DNA of 64,000 bases from Pseudanabaena galeata CCNP1313 (GTDB taxonomy: Bacteria > Cyanobacteriota > Cyanobacteriia > Pseudanabaenales > Pseudanabaenaceae): NCBI RefSeq assembly GCF_029910235.1, contig NZ_CP112874.1, positions 2,356,001-2,420,000 on the forward strand, given 5' to 3'. Both the position numbers and the translations under genes were made by a program. Each line of letters starts with the position of its first letter. Position 1 is the stretch's first letter. Shown piece after piece: positions 1 to 13,078 of the stretch. The notes beneath the pieces are model-generated. The model ran no database searches, was not told the DNA's origin, and was given only the letters and a program-made list of their open reading frames with translations.

Positions 1-965
1 TCGCCAAACAAATATCATCGAAAATGGCTAATGGGGTAGCAAGAGAAGTACAACGAGATTTGCGTGATAATCATGGGCGTGAGGTAGCAGTATCCTATAT
101 TCAGAGATTGAGCGAAGCGGTTGGCAGCATTGTGCAAGCAAAAGAAGAAAGTGACAATTATGAGCCGCCAGAGATAGATGTCAAGATTGAATCGGTTGGT
201 ATAGGGTTAGATGGAACCTGTATGCTGATGTGTGAAGATGGCTGGCGAGAAGCTATGGTAGGGACGATATCATTATATGATAGTGAAGGAGAACGTCAGC
301 ACACGATCTATCTGGGAGCAACACCAGAATATGGTAGGAAGCGATTTTTAGAACGATTAGAGCGAGAAATCAGACAAACAAAAGATCGATATCCTAATGC
401 AACCTATGTAGGAATTGCTGATGGAGCCGAATCCAACTGGAAATTCTTAAATGAACACACAGAAGAGCAGATCCTCGATTTTTATCATGCTTCAGGTTAT
501 TTGGGAATACTAGCCGAAGTTCTACATCCTAAGCAAATTCCCGAACAAAAAGAATGGCTTAAAAATAGTTGTCATCAACTCAAACATGAAATCGGAAGTG
601 CCGAAAAATTCTACAACCAGATGGTACTGGCGATGACTGAAAATAAGCTAACCGAAACCATGAGGGAAAAGCTCCAAGCTTCGATTACTTACTTTAACAA
701 TCATTTGTGGCAAATGGACTATGCTCAATTCCAACAGAAAACCTATCCGATTGGCTCTGGTGTGACCGAAGCTGCTTGCAAGACTTTAATAAAGCAACGA
801 TTATGTTGCTCTGGGATGCGTTGGAAGGACAAGGGGGCGAGCATAATTTTGAGTTTAAGAGCTTTAGTTTTAACTTCTACTCGTTGGGAGCAATTCTGGG
901 ACAATCTCAATCAGTATGGGTTTCCTGCTGCTGTCTAATAATTGTATTGTATTGAGGTCGCACCC
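1..965 (+). mobile_element. ISKra4-type insertion sequence, right part (cut by window edge)
   Basis: Bases 1-965 match the right part of the complete copy at 43211-44588, with no difference noticed by eye. Identity stops after GAGGTCGCACCC at 965, which is the right terminal inverted repeat of the complete copy. The left end lies outside the window, so its target duplication cannot be read. Confidence 0.9.
3..938 (+). CDS. ISKra4-family transposase, 5' end outside window
   Basis: This is the C-terminal part of the 426-residue transposase seen whole at 43281-44561; the reading frame is open to the window edge. The internal ATG at 24 is not a real start. The C-terminal block GSGVTEAACKTLIKQRLCCS followed by GMRWK is the recognisable signature of ISKra4-type DDE transposases. 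The protein agrees with the second copy throughout, which points to recent transposition or gene conversion. It would cut and join the ends of its own element. Whether the missing 5' part is intact cannot be told here. Confidence 0.9.
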   Translation, partial: AKQISSKMANGVAREVQRDLRDNHGREVAVSYIQRLSEAVGSIVQAKEESDNYEPPEIDVKIESVGIGLDGTCMLMCEDGWREAMVGTISLYDSEGERQHTIYLGATPEYGRKRFLERLEREIRQTKDRYPNATYVGIADGAESNWKFLNEHTEEQILDFYHASGYLGILAEVLHPKQIPEQKEWLKNSCHQLKHEIGSAEKFYNQMVLAMTENKLTETMREKLQASITYFNNHLWQMDYAQFQQKTYPIGSGVTEAACKTLIKQRLCCSGMRWKDKGASIILSLRALVLTSTRWEQFWDNLNQYGFPAAV

Positions 966-1639: not shown

Positions 1640-2053
1640 TTGGAAGCTAAGTTGAAACACCTTGAGATGGTTCAAAGCGTTATAAACCGAATGGCAGGAA
1701 ATTCTTTTTTGATTAAGGGTTGGAGCGTTACTTTGACATCGGCACTTTTTGCACTTGCCGCCAAGGATTCAAATTCATTCTTTGTATATTTAGCCTATTT
1801 CCCATGTGTAACTTTTTGGTCTCTAGATGGTTATTTTCTTCGTCAAGAAAGACTTTATCGGAAGCTCTACCAAGTAGTTGCAAAAAAGAAAATTGACGAT
1901 ATAGACTTTTCTATGAACGCCGATGTTTATGAGGACAAGGTTGATTCTTGGTTTTCAACTTGCTTCTCAATAACGCTTAAGATTTTTCATGGAACTATCT
2001 TCAGTACAATTATCATTATCATAGTAATTATTGCAGCAACAGGAGGGAAATAA
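1640..2053 (+). CDS. small three-helix membrane protein paired with a TIR protein
   Basis: A 137-residue protein starting at TTG. A basic, amphipathic N-terminus is followed by hydrophobic segments at about residues 24-41 and 46-62, a charged middle part (about 65-105) and a C-terminal hydrophobic segment at about 113-134 rich in isoleucine. Its stop overlaps the ATG of the TIR gene by one base (TAATG), and AGGAGGG at 2041 serves as that gene's ribosome site, so the two are translationally coupled. By context it may be a membrane effector whose activity is controlled by the TIR protein, similar in concept to SLATT-type proteins of bacterial conflict systems. Membership of a named family is not claimed. 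Confidence 0.75.
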   Translation: MEAKLKHLEMVQSVINRMAGNSFLIKGWSVTLTSALFALAAKDSNSFFVYLAYFPCVTFWSLDGYFLRQERLYRKLYQVVAKKKIDDIDFSMNADVYEDKVDSWFSTCFSITLKIFHGTIFSTIIIIIVIIAATGGK

Positions 2054-2586
2054 TGGCTAGACGAGTATTCTTCAGCTTTCACTATCAACGCGACGTTTGG
2101 CGCATAAATCAGATTAGAAGTATTCCTAACATTACAGGCTGTGCAGCAGCTGGATTTCAAGATGCCTCACTTTGGGAAGATGCTAAAAAAAAGGGTGATG
2201 CCAACATTAAAAGAATGATTGACAATGCACTCTACAACACTAGCGTCACTGTTGTTTTCATTGGAAATCAAACTGCGAATAGAAAATATGTCAACTATGA
2301 GATTGAACAGTCTATTGCGCGTGGTAATGGAGTGGTTGGAATACAAATTCACCATTTATCAAATCATTATGGACAAAGCGATCAACCAGGTGCTACCCCA
2401 AAACTGATTCTAGAGCATGGCTTTAAGGTCTATAAGTACTTTAACTATAAAATGTTGGCTGATAGAATTGAAGAAGCTGCGGAGATTGCACAAGCTAGGA
2501 AGATTAAGAAGAATTTGCGTAGTTTGGGCTTATTAAGCCAAAAGCTTCCTCTTACAGCTAGAGCTATGTACAGGCGAAATGATTAA
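2053..2586 (+). CDS. TIR-like (DUF1863/ThsB-type) domain protein
   Basis: A 177-residue soluble protein. The first about 120 residues look like the MTH538/DUF1863 TIR-like fold found in Thoeris ThsB proteins: RRVFFSFHYQRDVWR at the N-terminus, DASLWEDAKKKGD near residue 40, the strand TSVTVVFIGNQTA near 63-75, and KYVNYEIEQS with Glu83 as a candidate catalytic residue. Such TIR domains usually act on NAD+ or make a cyclic nucleotide signal after phage infection. The C-terminal about 55 residues are basic and helical. It is coupled to the membrane protein upstream. No ThsA with SIR2 or macro domain is nearby, so this is not a standard Thoeris system. Confidence 0.85.
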   Translation: MARRVFFSFHYQRDVWRINQIRSIPNITGCAAAGFQDASLWEDAKKKGDANIKRMIDNALYNTSVTVVFIGNQTANRKYVNYEIEQSIARGNGVVGIQIHHLSNHYGQSDQPGATPKLILEHGFKVYKYFNYKMLADRIEEAAEIAQARKIKKNLRSLGLLSQKLPLTARAMYRRND

Positions 2587-5084: not shown

Positions 5085-6365
5085 TTAAACTAAATGATTA
5101 TGAATCGAGCCTTTAGGTAGTTCGTCATAATCCCCGTCCCAAGAGAATCTCAAACGATTTTTGTAGACACCTTGATAGTTAAAAAGATCTAAAAGAACAA
5201 GCTCTAAATACCACAAACTTAAGCGCCAAGACTGTTTTCTTATATTTGTGGGATGTACTTTTTTCTTTTGGTTAAGATGCGTAAGCCTATTACGAACTTC
5301 CGTAATTGCCTTAGGTATACTAATTTTCTTTCCCTCAGCAAATTTTAGCAGGTCAGTAATATACTCCAATTTAGTATCAGTGTGACTTGTAGGAAGTTTT
5401 GACATTTCAAAAAGCTTCACTAGTTTCTTATCAGCAGAATCATTAATATATTTACCGATTCGATGTTCATATAAAAGTTCAAGGGCTGAATGAGTCAAGA
5501 TGATTGAACCTTCAATAGCTCCTGCCTGAAGGTTACTTTCTACATACCAGTGAATAGCAAGTTGTAGTGGCTGCTGCCAATCTGAATCTTCCCAAAGATT
5601 CATAAATCCTACAAAAGCTTCTGTTAAATTTTCAGGTCTTTGAACTGGGAACCACGAAGTTATATTTCGTTGGTATGCGGATGCTGTAGAAGAATACCAA
5701 ATTTCCCATGTAGGAATATTTTCAGCATTAAAACCAATAGGCAGTAAAAGTCCTACCCATAATCCTCTAGCAAATGATAGAAAAGATGATAAACCACTTA
5801 AAATATCTAGTGCTTCTTCAGAGGTAAATGTATGTTTGTTGCTCTTTTCAAGTTTAGCTACATGGGTAATTGCATATCCGCCATCATCTTCTAGAGAGTT
5901 AGTCAGTTCTTTGATTTTTTCTACTGGAGCAATCGTTATTTTCCATCCATTTGATTCTAATAAAAGCTGACAGCTATGAAAATTTGTGAGGTGAAATATT
6001 ACATAGGAAAGATTTGAATTAGAAGTGATAACAGCAGGCTCATGTAAAAAGCCTGAAACCTCTGTTTTTATTCCTACCGATAATTGATATTTAGTGGCAT
6101 TAGCCTTACAGGAAACCTTTAAATTGACCAATTCTAAAACATGTGGTTTTTCATAATTAAACGCAACACTATCGTTAGATTCAAAAGAATATTTGATTCT
6201 TGTTGTGGGAAACCAATTAAGTTTTACGACTCCAGTTCCATGAGCTACGATATCCCGATCTCCTTGTTTTCCAATAAATTTCATGTCTCCTTCGTAGAGA
6301 GTCAATGGTTGGTTTATCTCCTCTGTTACATATACTGGAGTTAGTGATTGAGGATCAATACTCAT
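5085..6365 (-). CDS. HEPN-like protein with R-x4-H motif (ApeA-like candidate)
   Basis: A 426-residue soluble protein on the minus strand. The N-terminal about 190 residues are beta-rich (LYEGDMKFIGKQGDRDIVAH and following), and the rest is helical. Near the end, ITEVRNRLTHLN contains Arg358-x4-His363, the catalytic signature of HEPN ribonucleases. The arrangement of a beta-rich N-terminal region before a C-terminal HEPN domain resembles ApeA-type antiphage proteins, but the match is by architecture and motif only. It stands alone, next to a toxin-antitoxin cluster on the other strand, which fits a defence or stress role. It could instead be a HEPN protein of unrelated function. Confidence 0.65.
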   Translation of the reverse strand: MSIDPQSLTPVYVTEEINQPLTLYEGDMKFIGKQGDRDIVAHGTGVVKLNWFPTTRIKYSFESNDSVAFNYEKPHVLELVNLKVSCKANATKYQLSVGIKTEVSGFLHEPAVITSNSNLSYVIFHLTNFHSCQLLLESNGWKITIAPVEKIKELTNSLEDDGGYAITHVAKLEKSNKHTFTSEEALDILSGLSSFLSFARGLWVGLLLPIGFNAENIPTWEIWYSSTASAYQRNITSWFPVQRPENLTEAFVGFMNLWEDSDWQQPLQLAIHWYVESNLQAGAIEGSIILTHSALELLYEHRIGKYINDSADKKLVKLFEMSKLPTSHTDTKLEYITDLLKFAEGKKISIPKAITEVRNRLTHLNQKKKVHPTNIRKQSWRLSLWYLELVLLDLFNYQGVYKNRLRFSWDGDYDELPKGSIHNHLV

Positions 6366-6551: not shown

Positions 6552-6812
6552 ATGCAAATTACAGTTGATATTCCCGATGAATTTCTACCAAAAATCAAAC
6601 AAACAGGCTTCTCCCTGCAAGAAATTGTTGCGAAGGCAGTTCAGCAATATCTTAATAGTGAACCAACTCTACTACAAACACAAACTTGGCAACTATGCGG
6701 TAAACTGCAAATTTCACAGCTAAAAGAAACGAATATCGTCGATGTTTCCACTATTGAAACAAACTATGCTGAACAGATTGACGATATTTTGTATGGGAAT
6801 CTCTCATGTTAG
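6552..6812 (+). CDS. VapB-like antitoxin
   Basis: An 86-residue protein that starts MQITVDIPDEFLPKIKQTGF, typical of small DNA-binding antitoxins of the VapB type in cyanobacteria, with a helical middle (LQEIVAKAVQQYL). The acidic C-terminus (ETNYAEQIDDILYG) probably wraps the toxin. Its stop overlaps the start of the PIN gene by seven bases, so the pair is co-translated. It is expected to bind and silence the toxin and repress its own promoter. Confidence 0.8.
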   Translation: MQITVDIPDEFLPKIKQTGFSLQEIVAKAVQQYLNSEPTLLQTQTWQLCGKLQISQLKETNIVDVSTIETNYAEQIDDILYGNLSC

Positions 6813-7216
6813 AAGTTATTCTTGATACATCAGCACTTATAGCCTTTTTTGTCGGCTCAGAAAAACACCATAAAGCAATACGCGATTACTTTTTCGCCAA
6901 TCCTAAAACAAAATGGGTAATCATCTCAACGGTCTTTGATGAAACCGTCACTTGGCTTCGTGTCAAAGTTTCTATTAAAGACTCAATCACTATTGGTCAT
7001 CTATTACGAAACGAACATCGTTATATTGCTCTATCTGAGATGGATGATACATGTGTATGGGAATCATTTCAACGGTACAATGACAAAACATGGAGTTATA
7101 CAGACTGTTCACTATTAGTTATGTCTCAACGATTAGAGATACCTACCATTGTTTCTTTTGATGAGCATATTCGTCAAATGAGTGGGCTAGGAGTTAATTG
7201 TGTACCGTTAATTTGA
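6806..7216 (+). CDS. PIN-domain ribonuclease toxin (VapC-like)
   Basis: A 136-residue PIN nuclease. The metal-binding acidic residues are visible as Asp7 in VILDTSALIAFF, Glu46 in FDETV, Asp100 in SYTDCSLLV and Asp119 in VSFDEHI. Toxins of this family cleave RNA, commonly tRNA or rRNA, when not held by the antitoxin. It follows the antitoxin with a seven-base overlap and is followed six bases later by a HicB-like gene. All four acidic residues are present, so the enzyme looks intact. Confidence 0.88.
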   Translation: MLEVILDTSALIAFFVGSEKHHKAIRDYFFANPKTKWVIISTVFDETVTWLRVKVSIKDSITIGHLLRNEHRYIALSEMDDTCVWESFQRYNDKTWSYTDCSLLVMSQRLEIPTIVSFDEHIRQMSGLGVNCVPLI

Positions 7217-7222
7217 GAACCT

Positions 7223-7447
7223 ATGAAATACACAATTACACTGCAATGGTCTGATGAAGATAAATGCTTTGTTGTTTTCTTGCCAGACTTTACCAACATC
7301 AACCAACCTTGCACTCATGGCAAAACCTATTCTGAAGCACTACAAAATGCTAAGGAACTGATCGAAATTCTAATAGAGCTTGCGATCGAAAAGAATGAAC
7401 CATTACCGAAGTATAAACCATATTACTATGGCAAAATCTCAGAATGA
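7223..7447 (+). CDS. HicB-like protein without HicA partner
   Basis: A 74-residue protein with the HicB fold signature: an N-terminal strand MKYTITLQWSDEDKCFVVFL, then PDFTN, HGKTYSEALQNAKELIEILI and a polar tail. HicB normally neutralises the HicA RNase. No HicA-like gene is next to it; the gene lies six bases after the PIN toxin on the same strand. Either it is an orphan, or it has joined the VapBC-like operon as a third member. It lacks the C-terminal DNA-binding domain of longer HicB proteins. Confidence 0.75.
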   Translation: MKYTITLQWSDEDKCFVVFLPDFTNINQPCTHGKTYSEALQNAKELIEILIELAIEKNEPLPKYKPYYYGKISE

Positions 7448-10892: not shown

Positions 10893-11699
10893 TTATCTTC
10901 GGAGCTTAATCTGTTTGGGAACTTTGATCTCATGGGTCTTATGGAAGTCATCTTGCACTTTTGCGGTCAAGCTTTTGGAAACACGCTGCACAATGAATCC
11001 CAACACACTATCACCTGTTTTCTGAATCATATCCTTAGCCAATTGCTGAATAAAAGCAGGAAAATGTAGGGAAACCGTAAGATGTAAATCCCATTCAATC
11101 GAGGTGATGATTGGGTTATTGCCTAGCTTTTCTCCTGCTCTTAGTTCCAGTTTCTTCTCCTCTAAGCGCATCTCCGCTTGGAAATCCACTTCATAGCCCT
11201 GTGGTTTCTGCTCAGGAATTGGAATCGTCACAATCCGATAAACGCAATTATCATCGGGGGGTAGCAAATTTAGCCCCACTCTGGCATCCACCTGAAACCC
11301 CAAAGCTCCGACTTTGCCAATCCCCATCGCATAGCCAGTGTTACCAATTGGCTCAGCCTTAAAAGGATGAGCGCATCGACGAAACCAACCCTGATGGGCA
11401 TCAAGATATTTCATCACAGTTGTTTTGTCAGCCAACAGATCCATGTTGCCAATGTAATGATTATGAAAATGTTGGAAATCAGAGCTTGGGGCATCTTTGG
11501 GGGTTAAATTTTTGCCATCCTTGGGATCAGTCTGATCGTCAGGATCTTGAAGATCAAACTGAGAATCGTCAATATTGCCATACTCGGCTAGCATGGCGGC
11601 TTCCTGTTCAGCCGTTAACACAAACTCAGAATCATCATCCCCTGTTGACTCTGAAATGAAATCTTGATTTGCAGGCGATCGCATTGGTTCTTGCTGCAT
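10893..11699 (-). CDS. DUF1997 family protein
   Basis: A 268-residue protein. The first about 80 residues are acidic and probably disordered (SESTGDDDSEFVLTAEQEAA and following). The remainder matches the DUF1997 family of cyanobacteria and plastids: a SRPBCC-like lipid-binding fold with WFRRCAHPFKAEPIGNTGYAM, GFQVDARVGLNLLP, and a C-terminal helix IQKTGDSVLGFIVQRVSKSL. Its function is not known. The stop is 47 bases upstream of the gvpF/L start on the same strand, so the two may be co-transcribed. Confidence 0.85.
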   Translation of the reverse strand: MQQEPMRSPANQDFISESTGDDDSEFVLTAEQEAAMLAEYGNIDDSQFDLQDPDDQTDPKDGKNLTPKDAPSSDFQHFHNHYIGNMDLLADKTTVMKYLDAHQGWFRRCAHPFKAEPIGNTGYAMGIGKVGALGFQVDARVGLNLLPPDDNCVYRIVTIPIPEQKPQGYEVDFQAEMRLEEKKLELRAGEKLGNNPIITSIEWDLHLTVSLHFPAFIQQLAKDMIQKTGDSVLGFIVQRVSKSLTAKVQDDFHKTHEIKVPKQIKLRR

Positions 11700-11782
11700 G
11701 ACGGATATCCTAAAATTGCTGATGCGCTAGTTGTTAACTATTTCCATCATAATAGTCTTAGAAGTTCGATTAGGGAAAGCAT

Positions 11783-13078
11783 ATGGCTCCGCGTACAGCA
11801 GTGATGGAAGCCGTCGAAAAGCTCAACTATCGGGTCACGATAGGTGATGTGGCGGCACAGTCTGGACTTGATCTCAATACAGCACAGCGCGAAGTGCTGG
11901 CACTTGCCTCGGAAACTGGTGGCAATCTCCAAGTTGCCGAGTCGGGCGAGGTAGCCTACAAATTTGCGCCAAATTTCCGTCAAGTCCTTGTCAGTCGTTC
12001 ATTTTGGCTACAGGTCAAAGAATGGCTCAAGGGTGCTTGGAAATGGGTGTTTTACGCAATTCGGATTTCCTTTGGCATTTTGCTGATTGTCTCGATTTTG
12101 ATCGTGGTACTGGGCATTATTGCCGCGACGATCGCCATCCAAAGTCAAGGACGCAGCGACAATGATCGCGATGATCGCCGTAGCGATAATCGCGGCGGTG
12201 GCGGTGGATTTATTTGGCTCGGCGGGTGGGGCAATCCTTTCGGCAACCCATTCATCATGTTTGATCCTTACTACTACGAGCCAGAACAGGTTCGTCAACG
12301 TGATCCCAATGAAATGGGCTTTTTAGAAAGCGTATTTTCATTTTTATTTGGTGATGGTAACCCTAACTCTGATCTCGAAGAACGCCGTTGGCGCGAGATT
12401 GCGACCATGATTCGCAGCAATAACGGTGTGGTTGTCGCTGAGCAAATTGCGCCCTACCTTGATGAAACTAGCCGTCTAGAGGGTGATGAATATTTTGTGA
12501 TTCCCGTCCTATCAAAATTTAACGGGTTCCCCGAAGTCAGCGATGCAGGAACCCTTGCCTATAAGTTTCCTGAATTACAAAAAGTTGCCTCCGAGCGCAA
12601 AGCCAAGACTACCAGTTCTTATTTGCAAGAAAAACTCTGGAAATTTAGCCAAGCCCCTCACGGCAAAATTGCTTTAGCGATCGGTTTAGGCATTTTTTAT
12701 CTAGTCGCCTCGCTATATCTAGGTAGTCTGCTCAGTAATCCTAGATTAGCCACATCTCTGGTGGGATTTTTAGGTTTTATCAAAGCCGCCTATGGTTTCT
12801 TGCTAGGTTATGCCATCTTGTTCCTGTCTACGCCTTTGGTGCGCTATTTTGTGTTGCAGTATTTGAATGGCGGAATAAGCGATCGCAACCAAAAACGGGC
12901 ATCCCGTGCTGAGCAATTAAAAAATGCATCATCAACTCTGCGCGAAAAGCTAAATTTTGCGCGTACTTTTGCCATGAAGCAAGAGGCGATTGATCAAAAT
13001 AATCTTGCCTACACCACTGAGCAAGATTTGGCGGATCAAGAATATGCCAAGATGCTCAAAGAAAATAAAGATAAATAA
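11783..13078 (+). CDS. conserved membrane protein, function unknown
   Basis: 431 residues. The first about 70 look like a winged-helix-like domain (VMEAVEKLNYRVTIGDVAAQ, followed by NTAQREVLALASETGG). A membrane segment follows at about 92-117 (ISFGILLIVSILIVVLGIIA). Then comes a basic/acidic linker ending in Gly-rich GGGGGFIWLGGWGNPFGNPF, a second alpha/beta domain with EQIAPYLDETSRLEGDEYFV that resembles the first, two or more further membrane segments at about 295-365, and a charged C-terminus. I recognise it as a conserved cyanobacterial type but cannot name a function. It is divergent from DUF1997, with an 83-base gap. Confidence 0.75.
   Translation: MAPRTAVMEAVEKLNYRVTIGDVAAQSGLDLNTAQREVLALASETGGNLQVAESGEVAYKFAPNFRQVLVSRSFWLQVKEWLKGAWKWVFYAIRISFGILLIVSILIVVLGIIAATIAIQSQGRSDNDRDDRRSDNRGGGGGFIWLGGWGNPFGNPFIMFDPYYYEPEQVRQRDPNEMGFLESVFSFLFGDGNPNSDLEERRWREIATMIRSNNGVVVAEQIAPYLDETSRLEGDEYFVIPVLSKFNGFPEVSDAGTLAYKFPELQKVASERKAKTTSSYLQEKLWKFSQAPHGKIALAIGLGIFYLVASLYLGSLLSNPRLATSLVGFLGFIKAAYGFLLGYAILFLSTPLVRYFVLQYLNGGISDRNQKRASRAEQLKNASSTLREKLNFARTFAMKQEAIDQNNLAYTTEQDLADQEYAKMLKENKDK

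What the first reader, a model, noticed from the sequence alone, without database searches (positions are those of the whole stretch)
5085..6365. Stand-alone HEPN-like protein, ApeA-like layout
Seen: Arg358-x4-His363 in a helical C-terminus after a beta-rich N-terminal region. Known: ApeA and other HEPN RNases cut RNA during phage infection. Inferred: a single-gene abortive system. The neighbouring toxin-antitoxin cluster suggests a small defence region between trpE and bioD.
Basis: partly seen in the sequence, partly recalled or inferred. Interest (0 to 1): 0.55.

Follow-up and report, generated by a model that had tools for sequence, protein, structure and literature searches.

The report
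HEPN defence protein related to ApeA
A cyanobacterial gene encodes a probable RNA-cutting (HEPN) anti-phage protein that is a distant cousin of the known defence protein ApeA and of the uncharacterised YopA protein of the Bacillus prophage SPbeta, which makes a little-studied family directly testable.

Summary
An intact 426-codon ORF lies at 6365-5085 on the MINUS strand, with R358-N-R-L-T-H363 near its end. R-x4-H alone is near chance (34% of shuffles), but R358, N359 and H363 are invariant in 18 of 18 full or near-full relatives down to about 24% identity. Of three partial copies, all keep R and H and two keep N. Relatives include YopA of phage SPbeta and an E. coli protein that RefSeq calls 'YopA family protein'. 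Profile-profile comparison aligns residues 171-399 with ApeA proteins, HEPN motif on HEPN motif (P 3.7e-7); shuffled and reversed controls fail. The first ~170 residues resemble nothing known, and the protein misses Pfam's ApeA cut-offs. So it is ApeA-like in layout and probable chemistry, but a sister family. Relatives often sit in restriction-modification, PD-T4-6 kinase or ApeA loci. Both AlphaFold models were too poor to test the fold. Best reading: a stand-alone HEPN RNase effector of abortive phage defence, at a variable spot between trpE and bioD. RNase activity, toxicity and defence are untested.

The parts
5085..6365 (-). 426-aa stand-alone HEPN protein of the YopA family
   Evidence: ORF; relatives; profile link to ApeA
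5277..5294 (-). RNRLTH, residues 358-363, predicted HEPN catalytic motif
   Evidence: R, N, H invariant in 18 of 18 members
5169..5855 (-). residues 171-399: region homologous to ApeA (end of its N-terminal domain plus HEPN), including LSFARG
   Evidence: hhalign prob 92.9, P 3.7e-7
5856..6365 (-). residues 1-170: N-terminal region, beta-rich in a low-confidence model, no known relative outside the family; carries the conserved GGYxITH motif (162-168)
   Evidence: no NTD-NTD match to ApeA
6552..6812 (+). 86-aa antitoxin-like ORF, divergent neighbour
   Evidence: no family match over a cut-off; also present in G409 at 98%
6806..7216 (+). PIN-domain (VapC-like) toxin
   Evidence: PF01850 5.3e-9; in G409 it aligns only over residues 1-44 and 115-136
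7223..7447 (+). HicB-like antitoxin
   Evidence: PF15919 3.4e-7

Best explanation
The gene encodes a stand-alone two-part defence protein of the YopA family. The C-terminal ~190 residues form a HEPN domain, which works as a dimer with RNxxxH residues from both subunits forming a metal-independent RNase site (general HEPN knowledge). The N-terminal half senses infection and holds the RNase off; the conserved LSFARG segment, shared with ApeA, couples the two. When a phage trigger appears, host RNA (tRNA or mRNA) is cut and the infected cell stops growing or dies, sparing its neighbours. In relatives beside RM or kinase genes the same protein is probably a second line behind those systems. Shown here: the ORF, motif conservation, homology to ApeA, defence-rich neighbourhoods of relatives, patchy distribution. 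Inferred: HEPN fold, RNase activity, dimer, trigger, abortive outcome.
For: R358/N359/H363 invariant in 18 of 18 members. hhalign to ApeA: prob 92.9, P 3.7e-7, motif aligned on motif; best of 20 column-shuffled controls scored 22.2 against 55.2 for the true comparison; reversed control prob 0.2, HEPN-only still prob 86. PF18739 hits 8 of 17 members weakly, best E 3e-4. Eight of 18 members lie beside defence-type genes: Eco57I/type IIG methyltransferase with PLD-SNF2 helicase or GmrSD (L023, L024, L044), PD-T4-6 kinase (L041, L025), type I RM with DUF262 genes (L019, L020), full ApeA plus an ADP-ribosyltransferase-like ORF (L105). Patchy: 11 of 386 cyanobacterial genomes, full-length in 3 of 26 of the genus, 19 of 5,426 E. 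coli genomes with any match. Prophage-borne in SPbeta. HEPN gene dN/dS 0.50 against 0.034 for trpE and 0.065 for bioD.
Against: No usable structure: models at pLDDT 37.8 and 47.6; the Foldseek and VIA-align rows shown hold no HEPN chain that I recognised. The Pfam HEPN_Apea match is below its cut-off. Ten of 18 members, including the window's, have no RM, PD-T4-6 or ApeA neighbour that I recognised; neighbours were scanned selectively and without a random-locus control. No experiment on any member was found.
Confidence: 0.66

Rival explanations
1. It is a true ApeA: same trigger and same N-terminal sensor, only diverged beyond the Pfam models.
For: Homology reaches from residue 171 to 399, i.e. 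into the end of ApeA's N-terminal domain; layout alike; a YopA-like gene sits directly upstream of a full ApeA in L105.
Against: No PF18862 match in any of 17 members; NTD against NTD prob 0.1. A YopA-like and an ApeA gene side by side in L105 suggests two different proteins, not one.
Confidence: 0.12
2. It is the toxin of a toxin-antitoxin module, held off by a neighbour (the divergent 86-aa or HicB-like ORF here; a small HTH protein beside the SPbeta and E. coli members).
For: TA-like genes adjacent; HTH genes follow yopA in SPbeta and the E. coli member.
Against: The 86-aa and HicB-like ORFs are divergent from it and were not seen beside other members except L017; the two HTH proteins belong to different Pfam families (HTH_26, HTH_73) and may serve the RES gene or the RM operon. 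HicB-like ORFs occur at this site without the HEPN gene in 3 of 25 genus loci (L081, L085, L097).
Confidence: 0.13
3. Catalytically inert or non-RNase HEPN: an RNA-binding or regulatory protein (for example of prophage physiology) rather than a defence effector.
For: No activity is known; some HEPN proteins probably lack RNase activity (stated in the abstract of PMC3710099, seen).
Against: That abstract describes the inactive HEPNs as lacking the motif; here the motif is fully conserved. Decay in several genomes and defence-type neighbours fit a defence gene better.
Confidence: 0.09

Closest known systems
YopA of Bacillus phage SPbeta (SPBc2p071) and RefSeq 'YopA family protein' in E. coli
   Same: Same family: tblastn E 2e-20 over 98% of the query for SPBc2 yopA; E. 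coli plasmid members E 1e-25 and 7e-24; same RNxxxH, GGY/FxITH and LSF/LAF motifs.
   Different: 24-27% identity; prophage or RM-island settings rather than a chromosomal gene between trpE and bioD. Function of YopA unknown in what I could search.
ApeA (PF18862 + PF18739), described in Anantharaman et al. 2013 (PMC3710099, passages seen) and listed as a defence system from Gao et al. 2020 (through PMC7699616 and PMC10952713, passages seen)
   Same: Beta-rich N-terminus then C-terminal HEPN; residues 171-399 homologous; RNxxxH at the same place; ApeA is also noted in R-M operons (PMC3710099).
   Different: Below Pfam cut-offs; first ~170 residues unrelated by profile; many members carry a C-terminal Y-x-G-x-Y-x-[NS]-R-L tail that I did not see in the ApeA set.
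487-aa distant relative elsewhere in the same genome (L032, G000:C1:4670426-4671211)
   Same: Profile-profile prob 97.8 over 382 columns; RNDAVH motif; similar C-terminal tail.
   Different: No Pfam or PADLOC match; very divergent; no detectable direct match to ApeA.

Membership tests
HEPN superfamily (predicted RNase class) | R-x4-6-H, commonly RN-x3-H, conserved in the family | tested here: met
   18 of 18 members; of 3 partial copies reaching it, R and H in 3, N in 2
HEPN superfamily (predicted RNase class) | Four-helix HEPN fold | tested here: inconclusive
   Domain model is helical but pLDDT 47.6; no significant PDB match
HEPN superfamily (predicted RNase class) | Homology to an accepted HEPN family | tested here: met
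   hhalign to ApeA-type proteins P 3.7e-7 with failed controls
HEPN superfamily (predicted RNase class) | RNase activity dependent on R and H | not testable with these tools
   needs bench work
ApeA | HEPN_Apea (PF18739) above its gathering score | tested here: not met
   14.8 bits against 24.4; best of 17 members E 3e-4
ApeA | ApeA_NTD1 (PF18862) N-terminal domain | tested here: not met
   no match in 17 members at E 1; NTD profile against NTD profile prob 0.1. The ApeA of L105 scores 4.5e-24
YopA family (NCBI name; no model of it found in the libraries used) | Full-length similarity to SPBc2 YopA and the E. coli 'YopA family protein' | tested here: met
Abortive-infection defence system | Protects a culture from phage by killing or arresting infected cells | not testable with these tools
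   only genomic context available

The most novel reading that the evidence does not exclude
The YopA family is a separate, uncatalogued family of abortive-infection HEPN effectors, spread over Cyanobacteriota, Pseudomonadota, prophages and plasmids. It shares ApeA's effector and coupling segment but has its own N-terminal sensor, and works alone (as here and in SPbeta) or as the suicide arm behind restriction systems and PD-T4-6 kinases.
Probability: 0.45. Interest if true: 0.58.

Novelty: new variant of a known kind. Interest (0 to 1): 0.42.

Why it matters
It gives a concrete, testable function to an uncharacterised gene of a model prophage (SPbeta yopA) and to a protein that NCBI names only after it. 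If right, PADLOC and Pfam (copies used here) miss a widespread HEPN defence family, and comparison with ApeA would show which part of these proteins senses infection and which part kills.

Tried and rejected
Family libraries: PADLOC, PHROGs and NCBIfam gave nothing convincing for the family (best E 0.015 and 0.017 in single members for PADLOC and PHROGs; none in NCBIfam). Solved structures: no match for the protein, for the family profile, for one ApeA, or for an ApeA profile (only rows at E 0.08 or worse). AlphaFold: two jobs with 3 and 4 sequences, both low confidence; the PDB searches run on the second gave globins, TolQ and the like with no E below 1 and Z at most 4.2, so nothing is drawn from them; no HEPN chain that I recognised appeared in the listed rows. 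Two viral-contig loci, L034 and L035, looked like weak hits (36% over 44 residues); the L034 match lies within a tape-measure-like ORF (my reading of its sequence) and both were dropped. The YopA-plus-HTH pairing as a TA module was considered and set aside because the two HTH proteins are of different families. Positive selection was considered for residues 297-348 (70% nt identity between the window and its 88% relative), but dS is high there too (0.91), which points to recombination instead. Rfam and tRNA scans near the gene were empty.

Full report
What is there. The ORF at 5085-6365 is on the minus strand, 426 aa, uninterrupted. RNRLTH occupies residues 358-363. In shuffles of the protein an R-x4-H turns up in 34% and RN-x3-H in 2.5%, so the motif needed support from relatives.

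Relatives. A protein search of 386 cyanobacterial genomes found matches in 11; the profile A2 found 13 of 386, some of them distant or broken. Within the genus, 3 of 26 genomes carry a full-length copy (G000, G409, G193, which searched 38 genomes of the order), G409 also holding a broken second one (L031/L033). Outside: 8 of 72,556 plasmid records, 1 of 50,697 phage records, namely yopA of SPBc2 (E 2e-20, 98% of the query), 19 of 5,426 E. coli genomes with any DNA match and 9 with at least 80% of the gene, and two viral contigs with a whole gene (L036, also fetched as L104, and L105) plus a fragment (L046). Some RefSeq records name the E. coli protein 'YopA family protein'.

Motif. In the 17-row alignment A2, 12 of 588 columns are invariant, among them R358, N359 and H363. 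With L105 that is 18 of 18. Partial copies left out of that count: L011 and L031 have RN...H, L009 has RK...H, and L010 does not reach the motif. Other conserved marks are GGYxITH (162-168), LSFxxG (196-201), Y274 and E296.

Link to ApeA. The window protein matches PF18739 (HEPN_Apea) at 14.8 bits, under the 24.4 cut-off; 8 of 17 members do so weakly, best E 3e-4. I collected PF18739-positive ORFs from the same 386 genomes (13 of 386 have one) and compared profiles. The family against 12 of these ORFs: prob 86.9, score 55.2, with 20 column-shuffled controls at most 22.2. Against 10 ApeA-type proteins including the full ApeA of L105: prob 92.9, P 3.7e-7, residues 171-399, RNRLTH on RNYLTH. HEPN part alone: prob 86.0; reversed ApeA: prob 0.2; N-terminal parts alone: prob 0.1. 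So the C-terminal module, with a stretch aligned to the end of ApeA's N-terminal domain (LSFARG), is shared, while the front ~170 residues are not detectably related. The own genome holds a further, more distant relative (L032, 487 aa, RNDAVH), related to this family over its length (prob 97.8) but not directly to ApeA (prob 0.2).

Structure. AlphaFold with three sequences and, for residues 176-426, four sequences gave mean pLDDT 37.8 and 47.6. Secondary structure fits (strands in front, helices behind), but the fold is undecided. The PDB searches on the second model were uninformative.

Neighbourhoods. The 18 members fall as follows. Nostoc and Planktothrix plasmids: Eco57I/type IIG methyltransferase, then the gene, then a PLD-SNF2 helicase, in Planktothrix with a sigma-70-like gene between (the Planktothrix methyltransferase and helicase by annotation only). 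G109 (L044): type IIG methyltransferase, GmrSD_N/AlbA protein, gene. G336 (L041) and Oscillatoria (L025): the called frames overlap a PD-T4-6 kinase gene by about 20 bases. E. coli (L019, L020): gene, HTH_73 protein, hsdM, hsdS, two DUF262 genes on IncY plasmids, and in chromosomal copies at uvrA-ssb1 two tyrosine recombinases and two hypotheticals before it and hsdR after. L105: ADP-ribosyltransferase-like ORF, gene, full ApeA (PF18862 4.5e-24, PF18739 3.2e-13). That is 8 of 18 beside defence-type genes. The other ten show none that I recognised: the window and L017 (TA-like genes only, within the trpE-bioD gap), L002/L037 (one neighbour with a weak PADLOC match, VakA 2e-7), L003 and L012 (both in L040, about 2.4 kb apart), L005/L042, L007/L043, L022, L026, and SPbeta (yopB HTH and yopC RES follow). 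Neighbours were scanned selectively and no random control was made. Some E. coli copies are cut by insertion sequences, and one B. subtilis strain is reported with yopA Trp234* (PMC6435635, passage seen): the gene is dispensable.

The locus. trpE, bioD and the FHA/PrsW-type gene after it are the frame. Among 25 genus loci around bioD, two have the HEPN gene (L079 = window, L080 = G409), nine have trpE within 1.5 kb of bioD and no HEPN gene, and 14 do not show trpE inside the fetched flank. HicB-like ORFs occur in five of the 25. In G409 the PIN toxin aligns only over residues 1-44 and 115-136. Between window and G409, dN/dS is 0.50 for the HEPN gene, 0.034 for trpE and 0.065 for bioD; dS is lower inside the gap (0.05-0.13) than in trpE (0.37), which suggests recombination across it. 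Residues 297-348 are a divergent patch (dN 0.29, dS 0.91). A PDC-M50A plus ThsB-like TIR pair stands at 1640-2586.

Mechanism. HEPN RNases act as dimers and are used in abortive defence: PMC3710099 (abstract and passages seen) and PMC13405049 (passages seen; a dimeric HEPN RNase cutting tRNA in a retron). [quoted passage not shown] I saw that title only, and the preprint is not held. I infer sensing by the N-terminal half, coupling through the segment shared with ApeA, RNA cleavage and growth arrest. Since the N-termini differ, the trigger may differ from ApeA's.

In print. Searches for yopA with SPbeta, yopA with prophage and Bacillus subtilis, 'YopA family protein', yopA/yopB/SPbeta prophage, yopA with HEPN, and SPbeta with HEPN and defense found no functional study of the family in the held library. 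Subscription journals and preprints are mostly not held, so this is not proof of absence.

Verdict. The protein is best called a YopA-family HEPN protein, a sister of ApeA rather than an ApeA, probably a stand-alone abortive-infection effector.

Noticed in passing
window 1640-2586 (+): Two-gene candidate defence pair: small membrane protein PDC-M50A (4.4e-53) and ThsB-like TIR protein PDC-M50B/ThsB (1.9e-46 / 5.8e-52); not seen upstream of trpE in L017.
   Followed up: partly
window 24-938 (+): Transposase-like ORF (304 aa; recognised by eye, no Pfam match over its cut-off) upstream of the TIR pair, suggesting a mobile insertion next to trpE.
   Followed up: no
window 6552-7447 (+): Antitoxin-like, PIN toxin and HicB-like cluster; in G409 the PIN toxin alignment lacks residues 45-114 while the two antitoxin-like ORFs stay at 98-99% identity.
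   Followed up: partly
L032:1423-2886 (G000:C1:4670426-4671211, minus): Distant 487-aa HEPN-like relative in the same genome, next to a RelE-like/antitoxin-like small ORF pair (my reading of the sequences); no Pfam or PADLOC match.
   Followed up: partly
L105:4237-7841: ADP-ribosyltransferase-like ORF, YopA-like HEPN and full ApeA in a row on an IMG/VR contig: two HEPN defence proteins side by side.
   Followed up: partly
window 5241-5477 (minus), residues 297-375: Patch of the HEPN gene just before and at the motif is far more diverged from the G409 copy than the rest of the gene (dS 0.91 over residues 297-348 against 0.06 over 1-296): likely recombination.
   Followed up: partly
L040:7656-9092 and 11515-12837: Two different family members about 2.4 kb apart in one cyanobacterial contig with integrase-like neighbours (integrase by eye).
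   Followed up: no
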